NCBI GenBank assembly: GCA_021732785.1
Contig: JAKFUG010000002.1
Location: 62,001-126,000 of the forward strand
DNA from: Planctomycetaceae bacterium
GTDB taxonomy: Bacteria; Planctomycetota; Planctomycetia; Planctomycetales; Planctomycetaceae
DNA: 64,000 nt
Direction: 5' to 3'
Of this stretch, positions 4,929 to 54,756 are shown piece by piece. A program made the position numbers and the translations under genes. The notes beneath the pieces are model-generated. The model was not told the DNA's origin and searched no databases. It worked only from the letters and a program-made list of their open reading frames with translations. Within the stretch, counting starts at the first letter, position 1. Every line of letters begins with the position of its first letter.

Positions 4929-6359
4929 GTGTCTCACGATGTTTACGACAACCCGCTGATTGGCCGGTACGCCTCGCGGGAGATGTGTGGGTTGTGGTCG
5001 CCGCAGACGAAACATTCGACCTGGCGGAAGCTGTGGGTGGCGTTGGCGGAAGCGGAGCAGGAACTCGGGCTGCCGATCTCGAACGAGCAGCTTGCTGAAT
5101 TGCGGGCGCACACCGACGACATCGATTTCGCCGCCGCCGCGCGACATGAAAAGCAGTTGCGGCACGACGTGATGGCCCATGTTCACACCTACGGTGAAGT
5201 CGCGCCGCTGGCCCGGCCGATCATTCACCTCGGGGCGACGAGCTGTTACGTCACCGATAACACCGATCTCATTCTGATGCGCCGCGGGCTGGAGATGCTG
5301 CGTCGGCAACTCGTCGGGGTGATCGATCGACTGGCAAAGTTCGCGACGGAATACCGCGCCCTGCCGTGTCTCGGCTTCACGCACATGCAACCCGCGCAGC
5401 CGGTGACCGTCGGCAAGCGGGCCACGCTGTGGTGCTATGATCTCGTGCTCGATCTGGAAGAACTCGAACAACGCATTGCGCGGCTGAAACTCCGCGGCGT
5501 GAAGGGGACCACCGGCACGCAGGCAACGTTCCTCGCGCTCTTTGAAGGGGATCATGCGAAGGTCGAGGAACTCGATCGCCGGGTGACGACAAAGCTCGGC
5601 TTTGACGAGCATTACGCCGTCACCGGGCAGACGTACTCACGGAAGGTCGATGCCCAGGTGCTTGATGTCCTCGGCGGCATTTCCCAATCGGCTCACAAAC
5701 TCGCGACCGATCTGCGGTTGCTGCAGAGTCGCAAGGAAGTCGAGGAGCCGTTCGAGAAGCATCAGATTGGTTCCTCGGCAATGGCCTACAAGCGGAACCC
5801 GATGCGGTCGGAACGCGTGTGCGGTCTCGCGCGGTTCGTGATGAGCCTGCAATCCTCCGCGGCTCAAACAATGGCCACGCAATGGATGGAACGAACGCTC
5901 GACGATAGCGCGAACCGCCGGCTAACGATCCCGCAGGCGTTCCTTGCGACTGATGCGATTCTCATCCTGCTGCGGAATGTGGTTGATGGCCTCGTGGTCT
6001 ACCCGAAGGTCATCGAGAAGCATCTGCAGGAAGAGTTGCCGTTCATGGCGACGGAAGAAATCCTGATGGCGGGGGTGCGGGCCGGTGGCGACCGACAGGA
6101 CTTGCACGAACGCATTCGCGTCCACAGCCAGGACGCGGGCCGTGTGGTGAAAGAAGAAGGCGGGGCGAACGATCTGCTCGAACGACTGCGAACGGACCCG
6201 GCGTTCGCGACGGTTGATCTGTCAAACACGATGGATGCGAAACGATTCATCGGACGTGCCCCCGAACAGGTGGACCGCTTTGTAGCGGATGTGATCGATC
6301 CAATTCGACGACGATACGCGAACGATGTCAACGCCGCCGCGGAAGATGTGCGCGTATAA
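4929..6359 (+). CDS. purB: adenylosuccinate lyase
   Basis: The enzyme cleaves SAICAR and adenylosuccinate with release of fumarate in purine synthesis. From the GTG at 4929 the protein has 476 residues and opens with [15 protein letters not shown], the usual beginning of this subgroup. An in-frame GTG at 4884 would add 15 unrelated residues. The fumarase/lyase superfamily signature [15 protein letters not shown] lies near residue 278, and the conserved [14 protein letters not shown] lies near residue 99. The sequence style is closer to the eukaryotic-type ADSL subgroup than to the E. coli type. It ends just before an inverted repeat that separates it from the next gene. Confidence 0.93.
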
Positions 6360-47582: not shown

Positions 47583-48161
47583 ATGTCTCCCGTCACGGCT
47601 CCCGCCGCACCGATTACCCCCGAGCAGTTCCTCGAACTGCCCGACCAGGAGCGGTACGAATTGGTGGGCGGCGAGCTAGTGGAGTTGCCCGCCATGAGTA
47701 TGGAAGGATCGGCAATCGCGGCTTTGCTTGCGTGGATGTTGAACAACTTTGCCTTGCCATCGAAACTGGGAGTGGTTTACGACAGCGAAGCCTCGTATTG
47801 CTGCTTTCCAAACGATGCCGATCAGGTACGCCGTCCCGATGTCAGTTTTATCGCCCGGGGACGACTGTCGCAGGATCAGTTCAAGCGTGGTCATTGCGTC
47901 ATCGCGCCTGATTTGGCAGTAGAAATTGTCTCGCCGAACGATTCTCTCGCCGAAATGGGCGTGAAAATAGAACAGTATCTGGAAGCAGGCGTGCGTCTTG
48001 TCTGGTTGATTAATCCTCTGTCTCGGACGGCCGAAGAGTATCGTCCGGATGGTCCCACCGCGCATGTCCGACGTGGGGGCACATTGTCAGCCGAGCCAGT
48101 ATTGCCTGGGCTGTCAATTCCATTGAGCTCATTGTTTCAAGACCCGGATCACGTGCTGTAA
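47583..48161 (+). CDS. Uma2-family PD-(D/E)xK endonuclease
   Basis: The 192-residue protein belongs to the Uma2 (DUF820) restriction-like nuclease family. YELVGGELVELP near residue 24 starts the fold, RRPDVSFIARG near residue 82 carries the catalytic Asp, and LAVEIVSPNDS near residue 107 supplies the Glu of the Glu-x-(Val/Ser) motif. The biological role of this large family is unsettled. It sits inside the complex I operon, between nuoC (six bases) and nuoD (42 bases), on the same strand. No partner methylase or antitoxin is adjacent. Confidence 0.88.
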   Translation: MSPVTAPAAPITPEQFLELPDQERYELVGGELVELPAMSMEGSAIAALLAWMLNNFALPSKLGVVYDSEASYCCFPNDADQVRRPDVSFIARGRLSQDQFKRGHCVIAPDLAVEIVSPNDSLAEMGVKIEQYLEAGVRLVWLINPLSRTAEEYRPDGPTAHVRRGGTLSAEPVLPGLSIPLSSLFQDPDHVL

Positions 48162-49941: not shown

Positions 49942-50544
49942 ATGGAATCGCGGCCGAGTGTGATCGTTCTCGGCGGGCCAAACGGTTCGGGAAAGAGCAC
50001 GGCCGCCGTTCGATTGCTCCACGAGACGTTGAGAATTATGGAGTTCGTCAATGCGGACGAGATCGCGAAAGGCTTGTCGCCTTTTAATCCCGACGGTGTC
50101 GCCGTGCAAGCCGGCCGAATTATGCTGACACGATTGGATGAGCTGGCGGCTCGGGGAGAGAGCTTCGCATTTGAATCCACCTTGGCATCGCGATCGTTCG
50201 CGCGATGGATCGAGAACCTGCAACGTGAGAAGAGCTACTTTTTTCGATTAGTTTATGTTTGGTTGAGAGACCCGCTGCTCAATATGGATCGCGTCAAATT
50301 GCGAGTGGAATCGGGTGGTCACAATGTTCCCGCAAGCACGATTCTTCGCCGTTACTATCGAAGTGTTCGTAATCTAATGGACTTGTATCTTCCGCTAGCA
50401 GACGCCTGGGAAATCTACGACAATTCGGTTTCTCGCGATTTTCAGATGGTGGCGAGCGGAAATGCCGGAAGTTCTCCGATTGTGGTTGATCCTGAAGCCT
50501 GGTCTTTATTGAGGTCACAATATGACTCCGCAGGAGACGAATGA
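49942..50544 (+). CDS. zeta-toxin family P-loop kinase
   Basis: The 200-residue protein has the Walker A loop VIVLGGPNGSGKSTAA at residues 7-22, the conserved NADEIAKGLSPF near residue 38, and FAFESTLAS near residue 75, the pattern of zeta toxins. Known members phosphorylate UDP-GlcNAc or related sugars and block cell-wall synthesis; the substrate here is unknown. Planctomycetes have thin peptidoglycan, so another target is possible. The gene lies inside the nuo operon and overlaps the next small gene by 23 bases. It looks AT-richer than nuoE and nuoF and contains TTTTTTCG runs unlike its neighbours. Confidence 0.88.
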   Translation: MESRPSVIVLGGPNGSGKSTAAVRLLHETLRIMEFVNADEIAKGLSPFNPDGVAVQAGRIMLTRLDELAARGESFAFESTLASRSFARWIENLQREKSYFFRLVYVWLRDPLLNMDRVKLRVESGGHNVPASTILRRYYRSVRNLMDLYLPLADAWEIYDNSVSRDFQMVASGNAGSSPIVVDPEAWSLLRSQYDSAGDE

Positions 50545-50743
50545 CCTGGTCGATCGCGCTTTTCGTGATCCCATGGTCATCAAAGCGGCGATTGAGCGGG
50601 GAATTGACGACGCCATAAAGCAGCATGCACAAGCCGGTCGCCTCCTCCCTTCCTGGAGAGACAACCGGGTTGTATTTCTGGACCCCGTAACGCTTCAGGA
50701 AGTCCCCGCCCCCACTTTGGCAACCACGACCACTCCGCAGTAG
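50522..50743 (+). CDS. small partner gene of the zeta-like kinase (possible antitoxin)
   Basis: The 73-residue protein begins inside the zeta gene, in another frame, which points to translational coupling. The N-terminal part is helical (NDLVDRAFRDPMVIKAAIERG), and a short beta part follows (RLLPSWRDNRVVFLDPVTLQ). Size and place fit an antitoxin or regulator, but the order toxin-then-antitoxin is reversed from the epsilon-zeta system, and no epsilon likeness is seen. It ends 42 bases before nuoF. Confidence 0.6.
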   Translation: MTPQETNDLVDRAFRDPMVIKAAIERGIDDAIKQHAQAGRLLPSWRDNRVVFLDPVTLQEVPAPTLATTTTPQ

Positions 50744-50785: not shown

Positions 50786-52132
50786 ATGGAAAATGATCGC
50801 ATGGCGAAGTTTGAACCGGTTTTGTTGGCTCGCGTCGGTAAGCCCGACTCCGCCAAGCTGGAAACCTATCAGCGTGACGGCGGTTACTCCGCGCTCAAAA
50901 AAGCCCTGGCGATGGCTCCCGAAGATGTCATCAACACGGTGAAAGATTCCGGGCTGCGCGGCCGCGGCGGCGCGGGCTTTCCCACCGGTCTCAAGTGGAC
51001 GTTTCTGCCGAAGGGGCATCCGGGACCGATTTACCTTGCGATCAACGCCGACGAATCCGAACCCGGCACGTTCAACAACCGCATTCTCATGGAAGACGAT
51101 CCCCATCAAATTATCGAAGGGATCATCATCTCGTGCTTTGCGATCAAGTCGAACAAGTCGTTCCTCTATCTTCGCTACGAATACGGCAAAAGTTTCCGGG
51201 CACTCGAGAACGCCGTCAACGAATGTTATGCCGCGGGGATTCTCGGCGATAACGTAATGGGCTCGGGGTTCAAGTGCGATATCGTGCTCCATCGCGGCGC
51301 GGCGGCGTACATCTGCGGCGAAGAAACCGGGCTGATCGAAAGCCTCGAAGGGAAACGCGCCTGGCCCCGAATCAAGCCGCCGTTTCCCGCGATTGAAGGG
51401 GCATTCCGCAAGCCGACGATCGTCAATAACATCGAGACGATGGCCTGCGTCGTCCACATCGTGAACAAGGGCGTCGAGTGGTTCAAATCGATGGGCGTCC
51501 CCGCCGATCCGAATAACCCACGCGATGCCGGCAGCTATGGGCCGAAGCTGTATTGCCTCAGTGGGCATGTGAATAAACCGGGTTGCTATGAAGTCCCGCT
51601 GGGGATCACCGCCCGGCAACTCATCGAAGAATACGGCGGCGGCGTGCCGAATGGACATGGGATCAAAGCCGTTGTCCCCGGCGGCATCAGCATGGGTTTT
51701 CTGTCGCCGAGCGAACTCGATACCCCGCTCGATTTCAACGGCCCGGGCAAAGTCGGTTGCCTCGGTCTCGGCACCGCCGCGGTGGTGGTGATCGACGATC
51801 AGACGAGCATGGTCGATGTCCTCTACAACTGCTGCCGGTTCTTCTCGCATGAGTCGTGCGGCCAATGCACGCCCTGCCGGGAAGGAACCGCGTGGATGAC
51901 CAAGATCATGCACCGCATCCGCAGTGGCGAAGGGGAAATGCGGGACCTCGACCTCCTCGCGGAAGTCGCCGGGTCCATCGGCATCATCCCCGGCACCACT
52001 ATCTGCGGCCTGTCCGATGGGGCCGCGTGGCCGGTGAAGAACGCGATCAAGAAGTTCCGACCTGAGTTCGAGGAATACATCCAAAGCAAACGGTCAACAA
52101 TCAAACCCGCGGAGTTGCTGGCGGCACACTGA
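50786..52132 (+). CDS. nuoF: NADH-quinone oxidoreductase subunit F
   Basis: The 448-residue protein is the 51-kDa subunit that binds FMN, NADH and a [4Fe-4S] cluster. GLRGRGGAGFPTGLKW near residue 54 is the NADH-binding glycine-rich loop, YICGEETGLIESLEG near residue 174 belongs to the FMN site, and SCGQCTPCREGT near residue 358 supplies the iron-sulfur ligands. An alternative start at the next ATG (codon 5) is possible. It is preceded and followed by accessory gene pairs that are not respiratory. Confidence 0.95.
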   Translation: MENDRMAKFEPVLLARVGKPDSAKLETYQRDGGYSALKKALAMAPEDVINTVKDSGLRGRGGAGFPTGLKWTFLPKGHPGPIYLAINADESEPGTFNNRILMEDDPHQIIEGIIISCFAIKSNKSFLYLRYEYGKSFRALENAVNECYAAGILGDNVMGSGFKCDIVLHRGAAAYICGEETGLIESLEGKRAWPRIKPPFPAIEGAFRKPTIVNNIETMACVVHIVNKGVEWFKSMGVPADPNNPRDAGSYGPKLYCLSGHVNKPGCYEVPLGITARQLIEEYGGGVPNGHGIKAVVPGGISMGFLSPSELDTPLDFNGPGKVGCLGLGTAAVVVIDDQTSMVDVLYNCCRFFSHESCGQCTPCREGTAWMTKIMHRIRSGEGEMRDLDLLAEVAGSIGIIPGTTICGLSDGAAWPVKNAIKKFRPEFEEYIQSKRSTIKPAELLAAH

Positions 52133-52176
52133 CCGATTTCGGAAGGCCCAGTTCTATCCAGGAAGGATGATTCTCG

Positions 52177-52428
52177 ATGACGACAACATGGTTGAATTGC
52201 CAAGTCCACAAGGGAATGTTTAGTGATGAGCGTGCAGTCGCGTTTGTCTTGAGCAGCGGAAAGGCATACTCCGCCTTCGTTCCTCAACAATTGGTCCGTG
52301 GAGAAATCAATCACGCAGGACAAGTTCTAGTTAGCGCCTTTCAGGATGGGGACGCATGGTGGGCGGTTGTCCCGAATGAGTATCGCGATGTTGTTGCGGT
52401 GAAGTCGACAGAGTTGGTGAGCGCATGA
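52177..52428 (+). CDS. 83-residue protein of unknown function coupled to the dCTP-deaminase-like gene
   Basis: The protein follows a strong AGGAAGGA ribosome-binding site and looks like a small all-beta domain (AVAFVLSSGKAYSAFVPQQL, then HAGQVLVSAFQDGDAWWAVV, ending VAVKSTELVSA). This could be an SH3-like or OB-like barrel. I do not recognise a family. Its stop overlaps the next start as ATGA, so the two are translationally coupled. The gene looks AT-richer than nuoF and nuoG. It may bind or regulate the deaminase-like protein, which would fit an antitoxin or sensor role, but this is inferred from position only. Confidence 0.65.
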   Translation: MTTTWLNCQVHKGMFSDERAVAFVLSSGKAYSAFVPQQLVRGEINHAGQVLVSAFQDGDAWWAVVPNEYRDVVAVKSTELVSA

Positions 52429-53021
52429 TTCTTTCCAATGTGGAAATCCAATTGGCTTTGGATTCAGGACGGTTAGTCATTGAGCCGCGACCGAAACCCT
52501 TTCATCCGGCAGCAGGTAGCGATGAATTTTGCCCGTACCAAACCACATCGGTTGACTTGCGGCTCGGAAATGAGATCGCCTTTTTTCGCGAAGGGCTGGC
52601 GGTCAACATCGATTTGAGGCGCGGTAAGTTTTCTGATCTTTTTGGCCCCTATTCAGAATCAAGACAAATTACGGACGATCAGCCGTTTTCGCTTGCTCCC
52701 GGAAAGTTTGTGCTTGGTAAAACACTAGAACGAGTGACGTTACCGTTGGTTGGCGTTGACGGAAATGTTCTTGCAGCTCGCGTTGAAGGGAAGAGTTCCT
52801 ACGCTCGGTGCGGACTACTGGTCCATTTTACAGCACCCACAATCCATGCCGGATTTGATGGGACGATTACTTTGGAACTCATCAATCTCGGGTCGATTCC
52901 AGTCATGTTGTATCCCGGCGCGCCAATTTGCCAATTGATCTTTGAAGAAGTAAAGGGTGTGCCGTTTCGTAACGATAGTCAGTTTCAAAACCAGATTCGT
53001 GCTGGGGGTCGATCGACTTAG
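52425..53021 (+). CDS. dCTP deaminase-like protein
   Basis: The 198-residue protein is of the Dcd/dUTPase superfamily, which acts on dCTP or dUTP. SVDLRLGNEIAFF near residue 43, RVEGKSSYARCGLLVHFTAP near residue 120 with the conserved Ser and Arg, and HAGFDGTITLELINLG with the catalytic Glu near residue 150 make up the site, followed by the QLIFEEV strand. Housekeeping Dcd supplies dUMP for thymidylate, but related enzymes also act as phage-defence proteins by draining dCTP. Insertion between nuoF and nuoG, AT-rich composition and coupling to a small gene make the second role worth testing. Confidence 0.82.
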   Translation: MILSNVEIQLALDSGRLVIEPRPKPFHPAAGSDEFCPYQTTSVDLRLGNEIAFFREGLAVNIDLRRGKFSDLFGPYSESRQITDDQPFSLAPGKFVLGKTLERVTLPLVGVDGNVLAARVEGKSSYARCGLLVHFTAPTIHAGFDGTITLELINLGSIPVMLYPGAPICQLIFEEVKGVPFRNDSQFQNQIRAGGRST

Positions 53022-53076
53022 GTGCCACGAAGGTGTGCCTCGGCGAACGATCTCACTTCGGACAACGCGAGCAATT

Positions 53077-54756
53077 ATGCCCACCGTTTACATTGACGAC
53101 AAATCGATCGAACTCGCTCCCGGCGAGAAGCTCAACTGCATTCAGGCGGCGGAGCGGGCGGGGATTGAGATTCCGTCGTATTGCTATCACCCCGCGCTGT
53201 CGGTTGTCGCCAGTTGCCGGATGTGCCTGGTGGAAGTCGGCGAAAAGAAGCCCGACGGCACCGTGAGCATCCCGCCGAAGGTCTTCCCCGGCTGTCAGAC
53301 GCCGGTGAAAGACGGCACGGTCATCGTCACCAACAGCAAGCGCGTGCTCGATGCCCAGAAGGCGACGCTCGAGTATCTGCTGCTGAATCATCCGCTCGAT
53401 TGCCCCGTGTGCGATCAGGCGGGTGAATGTGGCTTGCAGGACTTCAGCTACAAGTACGGCCGTGGTTACAGCCGGTTGAACGAACCGAAGAACATCAAGC
53501 CCGATAAAGATTACATCGGCGAGCAGATCACGCTCTTCACCGACCGCTGCATCATGTGTACGCGGTGTGTGCGGTTCACACGGGAATACAGCGGCACCGG
53601 TGAATTGCAGGTCATCAACCGCGGGTCGCACGAAGAAATCGACATCTTCCCCGGCCAGCCGTGCGATAACAAACTCGCGGGGAACGTGGTGGATCTCTGC
53701 CCGGTCGGGGCGCTGTGCAGCAAAGATTTTCTGTACGAACAGCGCGTCTGGTGGCTCAAAGGGAAAGACAGCGTCTGCCCCGGTTGCAGCACGGGTTGCA
53801 GCATTCGGGTCGACCAGAACAATGACGTGCTCTATCGCCTGAAGCCGCGGTACAACCCGCAGGCGCAGGGCCACTTCATGTGCGACGAAGGCCGCTTCGG
53901 CTGGAAGTACATCTCGTCGGAAAAGCGTCTGCGGCAACCGTATCAGAAACAAGGGGCCGGCCTCGCTCCGTCGAACTGGAATACGGTAATGCCCGCCGTG
54001 AAGACGGCCATCGCTACGCAGGTTAAAGCTGCACCGAGCAAGTTCGCGGCGATCATTTCCCCGTGGTCGACCGTCGAAGAAGCTTATCTGCTGGCAAAGT
54101 TGCTGAAAGGGATGTCTTCCGACATCACGCTGGCACTCGGACCGGTGCGCCATGTCGGTGACGACGATCACTATCCGAAGACAGTGACCGGCGCGCCGCC
54201 GAAGGACGTGAAGTTCACGATCCGCGCCGAAAAGTGTCCGAACCGCCGCGGTGTCGAAGGAGTGCTGCAACACTTCCAGGGAAGTGTCATCTCCTTTGAA
54301 ACCATCGAATCGCAACTGAAATCCGGTGCGCTGGAAGGGCTGTTTGTCCTCAATGCCGATCCCGAAGCCACGTTCACGGCGGACTTCGTGCAGGCGGCGA
54401 AGGGACTGAAACTGCTTGTCGTGCAGGATTTGCTCGAATCCCCATTGGCGAACGAAGCCCACTTCGTGCTTGCCGGCGCCGCCTGGGCGGAAAAGGAAGG
54501 CACGTTCGTGAATCACAACGGTCTTGCCCAAGGCATTTTCCGCGGTGTGCGCGGACCGGGTGAAGCCCGACCCGATGGCCGGATTCTGTGGGAACTCAAC
54601 GACCGCAAGGGACTTTTCCGAGCGTCGACAGTGCGGCAGGAAATCGCCAACGAAATCAACGCTTTCGCCCCGCTCATCCTGGGCGATCTCGGAGAACACG
54701 GCGTGATGCTCAACAGCAGCACCATTCCCGCCACAAAAGAATTGCAACCGGTGTGA
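53077..54756 (+). CDS. nuoG: NADH-quinone oxidoreductase subunit G, short form
   Basis: The 559-residue subunit carries several iron-sulfur clusters of the electron chain. Sites seen are the [2Fe-2S] group (CYHPALSVVASCRMC near residue 34), the His-Cys group HPLDCPVCDQAGECGLQDF near residue 105, two [4Fe-4S] groups starting CIMCTRCVRFTREY near residue 155, and a molybdopterin-type CPGCSTGCSI near residue 230 with a fourth Cys in MCDEG. The C-terminal molybdopterin region is shortened against the 750-900 residues usual elsewhere. The start at 53077 (MPTVYIDDKSI) follows homology. The upstream frame overlaps dcd. Confidence 0.93.
   Translation: MPTVYIDDKSIELAPGEKLNCIQAAERAGIEIPSYCYHPALSVVASCRMCLVEVGEKKPDGTVSIPPKVFPGCQTPVKDGTVIVTNSKRVLDAQKATLEYLLLNHPLDCPVCDQAGECGLQDFSYKYGRGYSRLNEPKNIKPDKDYIGEQITLFTDRCIMCTRCVRFTREYSGTGELQVINRGSHEEIDIFPGQPCDNKLAGNVVDLCPVGALCSKDFLYEQRVWWLKGKDSVCPGCSTGCSIRVDQNNDVLYRLKPRYNPQAQGHFMCDEGRFGWKYISSEKRLRQPYQKQGAGLAPSNWNTVMPAVKTAIATQVKAAPSKFAAIISPWSTVEEAYLLAKLLKGMSSDITLALGPVRHVGDDDHYPKTVTGAPPKDVKFTIRAEKCPNRRGVEGVLQHFQGSVISFETIESQLKSGALEGLFVLNADPEATFTADFVQAAKGLKLLVVQDLLESPLANEAHFVLAGAAWAEKEGTFVNHNGLAQGIFRGVRGPGEARPDGRILWELNDRKGLFRASTVRQEIANEINAFAPLILGDLGEHGVMLNSSTIPATKELQPV

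What the first reader, a model, noticed from the sequence alone, without database searches (positions are those of the whole stretch)
52177..53021. Coupled 83-residue gene and dCTP-deaminase-like gene inserted between nuoF and nuoG
The two genes overlap as ATGA, have their own strong ribosome-binding site, look AT-richer than the genes on both sides and break the nuoF-nuoG order. Dcd-family proteins include enzymes that deplete dCTP during phage infection. A small all-beta partner of unknown family could be a sensor, inhibitor or antitoxin. This could be an undescribed two-gene nucleotide-depletion module, or simply a relocated housekeeping dcd.
Basis: partly seen in the sequence, partly recalled or inferred. 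Interest (0 to 1): 0.72.

Follow-up and report, generated by a model that had tools for sequence, protein, structure and literature searches.

The report
Mobile dCTP deaminase–small partner gene pair
A tiny, previously unnamed barrel-shaped protein and a distinctive branch of the dCTP-deaminase enzyme family travel together as a two-gene cassette through about a dozen bacterial phyla, here inserted into a respiratory-enzyme operon, and phages sometimes carry the small gene without a working enzyme gene, so the pair may be an undescribed switch for draining a DNA building block, although that function is untested.

Summary
Window 52177-52428 (83 aa) and 52425-53021 (198 aa, DCD family) overlap by ATGA, have GC3 0.54/0.46 against 0.75-0.80 for the nuo genes, and split nuoF from nuoG. 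A same-genus genome with 97% identical NuoF has the empty site.

The enzyme is not the relocated housekeeping dcd: the genome has another, which groups with its relatives' dcd. The window enzyme belongs to a separate clade with motif H-[FV]-T-A-P-T-I-H in place of H-x-T-A-[GH]-x-[IV]-D; the catalytic Glu is kept. The 83-aa gene is the clade's companion: 77 of 80 loci from many phyla carry it beside the enzyme gene, and none of about 66 other DCD loci does. It matches no Pfam, NCBIfam or PADLOC family; AlphaFold gives a confident all-beta barrel (pLDDT 97) without a clear fold match.

The pair is rare and patchy, sits on conjugative rhizobial plasmids, and occupies a gap that holds HicAB or HicB in relatives. 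Some phage contigs carry the small gene with a truncated DCD or none. Best reading: a mobile toxin-antitoxin-like nucleotide-depletion module, the small protein restraining the deaminase. Linkage and mobility are shown; binding, direction of control, toxicity and anti-phage activity are inferred.

The parts
52137..53070 (+). Segment absent from the sister genome G002 (empty site of 28 bp between nuoF and nuoG)
   Evidence: blastn: window 50791-52136 and 53071-54714 match L198 4352-5699 and 5728-7371; alignment coordinates
52160..52167 (+). Shine-Dalgarno-like AGGAAGGA, 9 nt before the start of the small gene
   Evidence: sequence
52177..52428 (+). Small partner gene, 83 aa, all-beta barrel, member of an unnamed family
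   Evidence: no family over threshold; family of 86 copies; 78 members: no consistent Pfam/NCBIfam match; pLDDT 97.3
52425..53021 (+). dCTP-deaminase homologue of the TAPTIH clade, 198 aa, overlapping the small gene by ATGA
52836..52847 (+). Codons of P138-T139-I140-H141: clade signature after the H-x-T-A allosteric loop; His replaces the motif-3 Asp (E. coli D128 by alignment)
52875..52877 (+). Codon of E151, equivalent of the catalytic Glu (E. coli E138 by alignment)
50786..52132 (+). nuoF, left flank of the insertion
53077..54756 (+). nuoG, right flank of the insertion

Best explanation
The two genes form a horizontally mobile cassette. The second gene encodes a dCTP deaminase of a distinct clade that keeps the deamination residues but has a Pro next to the dTTP-sensing loop and a His in place of the motif-3 Asp. 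It is therefore predicted to turn dCTP into dUTP, with weakened dTTP feedback and no dUTP hydrolysis of its own. The first gene encodes a small beta-barrel protein, made from the same transcript just before the enzyme, that binds the deaminase and restrains it. When the partner is lost or titrated, for instance on phage infection, the enzyme would drain dCTP and raise dUTP, as AvcD does. Phages that carry the small gene without a working DCD would be supplying the antidote. SHOWN: clade, linkage, insertion, mobility, catalytic residues, predicted fold class of the partner, small genes in phage contigs without an intact DCD beside them. INFERRED: enzyme activity, co-transcription, binding, direction of control (restraint rather than activation), toxicity, anti-phage role.
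For: Linkage: 77 of 80 genome loci carry the small gene beside the DCD, 39 with the same ATGA overlap; 50 of 52 copies in 50 genomes are adjacent to a clade DCD; 10 of 12 copies among 392 planctomycete genomes, found through the small gene alone, are adjacent. The two proteins share their history (Mantel r 0.77, 0 of 2000 permutations). The DCD clade is one side of a branch, support 90. Catalytic Glu, Ser111, Arg115 and His121 equivalents are invariant in 77. Mobility: empty site in G002, low GC3, conjugative plasmid copies, rare and patchy. TA-like slot: the same nuoF-nuoG gap holds HicA/HicB in G001 and a HicB-like ORF in G003. Phage copies: L037 (portal, prohead protease, capsid neighbours) and L213 (terminase) have an intact small gene and a DCD cut at about 120 and 37 residues; L217 (terminase, portal) and prophage-like L208 (TerL) have none beside it. 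Precedents: AvcID (PMC10511110) and protein inhibition of a dUTPase-superfamily enzyme by Stl (PMC5593958, PMC5847570).
Against: No activity, toxicity or binding data. DCD without partner exists: L126 (no copy found in that genome) and L087 (only copies elsewhere in the genome). Immediate neighbours are mostly housekeeping genes, with only a few restriction-modification genes, so there is no clear defence-island signal (no baseline was run). About a third of the 50 genomes show no other full-length DCD (my reading), which would also fit a metabolic role. AlphaFold of a read-through fusion gave pTM 0.72, which does not show docking. Phage numbers are small and the contigs are metagenomic.
Confidence: 0.42

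Rival explanations
1. Accessory nucleotide-metabolism enzyme: a horizontally spread dCTP deaminase whose small subunit stabilises, activates or tunes it, replacing dTTP feedback. It supplies dUTP/dTTP or cleans up modified dC nucleotides and has no conflict role.
For: Full catalytic set conserved; neighbours mostly housekeeping; in roughly a third of carrier genomes no other full-length DCD was found; partnerless DCD occurs.
Against: Most carriers, including this genome, have another DCD; presence is rare and patchy at 10 of 392 planctomycetes and 1 clear case in 398 of a second phylum; phage contigs keep the small gene without an intact enzyme gene.
Confidence: 0.3
2. Sensor-effector defence pair: the small protein is not an inhibitor but recognises a phage component and switches on the deaminase. 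Solo phage copies would then be decoys.
For: Same linkage and mobility evidence; strong divergence of the small protein (identity to the window often 20-40%); phage copies.
Against: No trigger known; no clear defence-island signal; the TA-like gene order and the HicAB-occupied slot favour an antidote-first cassette.
Confidence: 0.17
3. Relocated housekeeping dcd with an unrelated small ORF in front.
For: The protein passes the dCTP deaminase equivalog cut-off.
Against: A second dcd at G000 C2 groups with the relatives' dcd; the small gene is conserved in 77 of 80 loci.
Confidence: 0.02

Closest known systems
dCTP deaminase (Dcd; TIGR02274, PF22769; E. coli and M. tuberculosis enzymes, PDB 1xs1, 2qxx)
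   Same: Sequence family, catalytic Glu/Ser/Arg/His positions, over the equivalog cut-off
   Different: Separate clade with TAPTIH instead of TA[GH]x[IV]D, and an adjacent dedicated small partner
AvcID, type III toxin-antitoxin, deoxycytidylate deaminase (PMC10511110)
   Same: Proposed outcome: dC nucleotide depletion by a deaminase held in check by a neighbouring antitoxin
   Different: AvcI is an RNA; AvcD is, to my knowledge, of another superfamily; no PADLOC model hits the window DCD
Staphylococcal Stl-dUTPase pair (PMC5593958, PMC5847570)
   Same: A protein partner that binds and inhibits a trimeric dUTPase-superfamily enzyme in a phage/mobile-element conflict
   Different: Stl is a DNA-binding repressor encoded apart from the enzyme; here an 83-aa barrel is encoded next to it, and binding is only proposed
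Type II toxin-antitoxin cassettes such as HicAB
   Same: Two small overlapping or adjacent genes, mobile, mostly single copy; HicAB occupies the same nuoF-nuoG gap in a sister genome
   Different: The proposed toxin is a nucleotide deaminase, not an RNase; antitoxin function untested

Membership tests
dCTP deaminase (TIGR02274 / PF22769) | Profile score over the curated cut-off | tested here: met
   133.2 bits against 92.8; 119.8 against 27
dCTP deaminase (TIGR02274 / PF22769) | Catalytic Glu (E138 E. coli) and Ser111, Arg115, His121 equivalents | tested here: met
   Invariant in 77 sequences
dCTP deaminase (TIGR02274 / PF22769) | Motif-3 Asp (D128 E. coli) | tested here: not met
   His in 77 of 77; part of the set was found with a pattern containing this His, but the motif is also His in the DCDs read beside copies found through the small gene alone. 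The claim of deaminase activity is therefore held as likely, not certain
dCTP deaminase (TIGR02274 / PF22769) | Deaminates dCTP to dUTP | not testable with these tools
   Needs purified enzyme or complementation of an E. coli dcd deletion
Type II toxin-antitoxin | Two adjacent genes inherited together | tested here: met
   ATGA overlap in 39 loci, 77 of 80 adjacent; Mantel r 0.77
Type II toxin-antitoxin | Toxic enzyme neutralised by protein-protein contact | not testable with these tools
   No expression data; fusion model pTM 0.72 is inconclusive
Known anti-phage defence systems (PADLOC-DB 2.0.0) | Match of either protein to a defence model | tested here: not met
   0 families at E up to 1 for both proteins
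AvcID | RNA antitoxin and AvcD-type deaminase | tested here: not met
   Partner is a conserved protein family; no PADLOC match of the DCD
SH3/Tudor/KOW-like small barrels | Structural match of the 83-aa model | tested here: inconclusive
   Best VIA Z 4.2; best Foldseek E 0.16 in the PDB

The most novel reading that the evidence does not exclude
A previously undescribed, phylum-hopping toxin-antitoxin or anti-phage system in which a dCTP deaminase freed from dTTP feedback is gated by a new beta-barrel protein family, and phages answer by carrying the barrel gene alone as an antidote.
Probability: 0.33. Interest if true: 0.86.

Novelty: new variant of a known kind. Interest (0 to 1): 0.66.

Why it matters
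If true, it adds a protein-regulated branch to the nucleotide-depletion defences, in an enzyme superfamily normally treated as housekeeping, so some genes annotated simply as 'dcd' would be mislabelled. It gives a sequence test (TAPTIH plus a small upstream ORF) that separates the two. Even if metabolic, a dedicated protein partner for a dCTP deaminase would be new as far as I found.

Tried and rejected
Relocated housekeeping dcd: rejected. Single-sequence homology for the small protein in phages, plasmids and same-class genomes: nothing significant; the family shows only through iteration and context. Recurrent neighbour genes: none of note; defence islands: a few restriction-modification neighbours only, no baseline run. 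Most viral DCDs are of the canonical TAGxID type without the partner. Fold search: no convincing relative; weak SH3/Tudor/KOW/IF1-type matches and one uncharacterised Microbacterium phage Armstrong protein (TM 0.61, E 0.04). Small genes in annotated phage genomes: none found. Docking by AlphaFold of a natural read-through frame (L123): pLDDT 89.7, pTM 0.72, inconclusive. A weak hit in G664 is probably a chance match: the local re-check found no small-family match among the ORFs called there. Mixed alignment A7 was discarded because small-only rows were misaligned.

Full report
OBSERVATION. The two ORFs are at the stated coordinates, overlap by ATGA, and follow an AGGAAGGA 9 nt before the first ATG. 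They are compositionally foreign: GC3 0.54 and 0.46 against 0.75-0.80 for the nuo genes. The flanks are NuoF and NuoG. In G002 (same genus, NuoF 97% identical) the two nuo genes are adjacent: 934 bp of the window are replaced by 28 bp. The insertion is real.

NOT THE HOUSEKEEPING GENE. The genome has a second DCD at C2:305796-306221. It sits with the dcd genes of its relatives and is only about 36% identical to the window protein over 116 residues. In a quick ML tree of 151 DCD proteins the window protein lies in a group of 88 that forms one side of a branch (support 90), apart from the housekeeping clade (the careful tree did not finish, so this support is provisional). The group has the motif H[FV]TAPT[IV]H, where other DCDs have HxTA[GH]x[IV]D. 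The catalytic Glu and the Ser, Arg and His equivalents are invariant in the 77 sequences checked. Part of this set was found with a pattern containing the motif, so its uniformity is biased; but the DCDs beside copies found through the small gene alone show it too wherever the motif was read.

THE SMALL GENE IS A CONSERVED COMPANION. By single-sequence search the 83-aa protein looks like an orphan, with no Pfam, NCBIfam or PADLOC match and only an insignificant PHROG match. An HMM started from it alone and iterated over six-frame translations of the held loci converged on 93 matches, 86 after removing duplicate loci. They lie beside DCDs of the same clade; none lies beside about 66 other DCD loci. 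Of 80 genome loci, 77 have it (one downstream instead of upstream), 39 loci with exactly the ATGA overlap. Exceptions are L087, L126 and L149; L149 has a similar but more divergent upstream ORF. In 50 carrier genomes there are 52 copies, 50 adjacent to a clade DCD. Across 392 planctomycete genomes searched with the small family only, 10 genomes carry 12 copies, 10 of them adjacent. Distances in the two proteins correlate (r 0.77, 0 of 2000 permutations), as expected of genes inherited together. AlphaFold gives a confident beta barrel (pLDDT 97.3) without a significant fold match. Seventy-eight members have no consistent Pfam or NCBIfam match.

MOBILITY AND SETTING. The pair is rare (about 2.5% of planctomycetes; one clear case, the centre genome itself, in 398 genomes of a second phylum) but spread over Planctomycetota, Proteobacteria, Myxococcota, Chloroflexi, Cyanobacteria, Bacteroidetes, Elusimicrobia, Omnitrophota, Nitrospirae, Spirochaetes and others (record titles, many of them MAGs, so single assignments may be wrong). 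It is on conjugative Sinorhizobium plasmids and on large Mesorhizobium plasmids. Neighbours do not recur and are mostly housekeeping. The nuoF-nuoG gap is a recurrent cargo site: the pair here, HicA/HicB in G001, a HicB-like ORF in G003, nothing in G002.

PHAGES. L037/L050 carries the small gene between prohead protease and capsid genes with a DCD that ends after about 120 residues. L213, next to a terminase, has an intact small gene and a 37-residue DCD stub. L217, with terminase and portal, has the small gene and no DCD beside it. In Thalassoglobus neptunius (G072/G297), whose clade DCD is partnerless, two small-family copies lie elsewhere: one (L208) near a TerL, the other (L211) in a less certain context. 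L152 and L156 are viral-collection contigs with an intact pair.

MECHANISM (inferred). In DCDs the HVTA loop moves when thymine nucleotide is bound and carries the dTTP control; in some dUTPases a conserved Pro restricts the loop, and Asp-to-Asn in motif 3 abolishes dUTP hydrolysis in human dUTPase (PMC4827122). The clade has Pro just after HxTA and His at the motif-3 Asp. I infer a deaminase with weakened dTTP control and no dUTP hydrolysis, for which a protein partner supplies the control. A partner encoded first, a mobile cassette, an insertion slot shared with HicAB, and phages keeping only the small gene favour restraint (antitoxin-like) over activation, but no experiment shows it. Against: partnerless DCDs, housekeeping neighbourhoods, and genomes where this is the only full-length DCD found. 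AvcD overexpression is also not lethal (PMC10511110), so tolerance of a lone DCD would not exclude the model.

KNOWN OR NEW. I found no description of the pair in the papers searched; the library is open-access only, so this is weak evidence. The enzyme is a member of the DCD family by profile and catalytic residues but departs at the motif-3 Asp. It is not an AvcID (RNA antitoxin). I rate it a new variant of a known kind: deaminase-based nucleotide control, with a new partner family.

Noticed in passing
window 49942-50544 and 50522-50743: Zeta-toxin/AAA_33-like gene (PF06414 33.5 bits) overlapped by a 73-aa gene, inserted between nuoE and nuoF; absent in G002, present in G003 (50% and 33% identical). 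Looks like another two-gene cassette in the same operon.
   Followed up: partly
window 47583-48161: Uma2-family gene (PF05685) upstream of nuoD, not found at this place in G002, present in G003: a third cargo gene in the nuo operon.
   Followed up: partly
L199 5444-5952 (G001) and L200 about 5346-5552 (G003): HicA/HicB pair and a lone HicB-like ORF in the same nuoF-nuoG gap of related genomes.
   Followed up: yes
L208 3590-4216 and L211 3028-3345 (Thalassoglobus neptunius): Two small-family copies away from any DCD, one near a TerL, in a genome whose clade DCD (L087) has no adjacent partner.
   Followed up: partly
Carrier genomes G069, G070, G073, G074, G104, G107: Open frames of about 370-410 aa with two DCD matches each (tandem DCD proteins) elsewhere in the genome.
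   Followed up: no
G081 contig C119 9942-11910 (L100): Three DCD/dUTPase-family matches within 2 kb in an Elusimicrobia genome, one of them the paired DCD.
   Followed up: no
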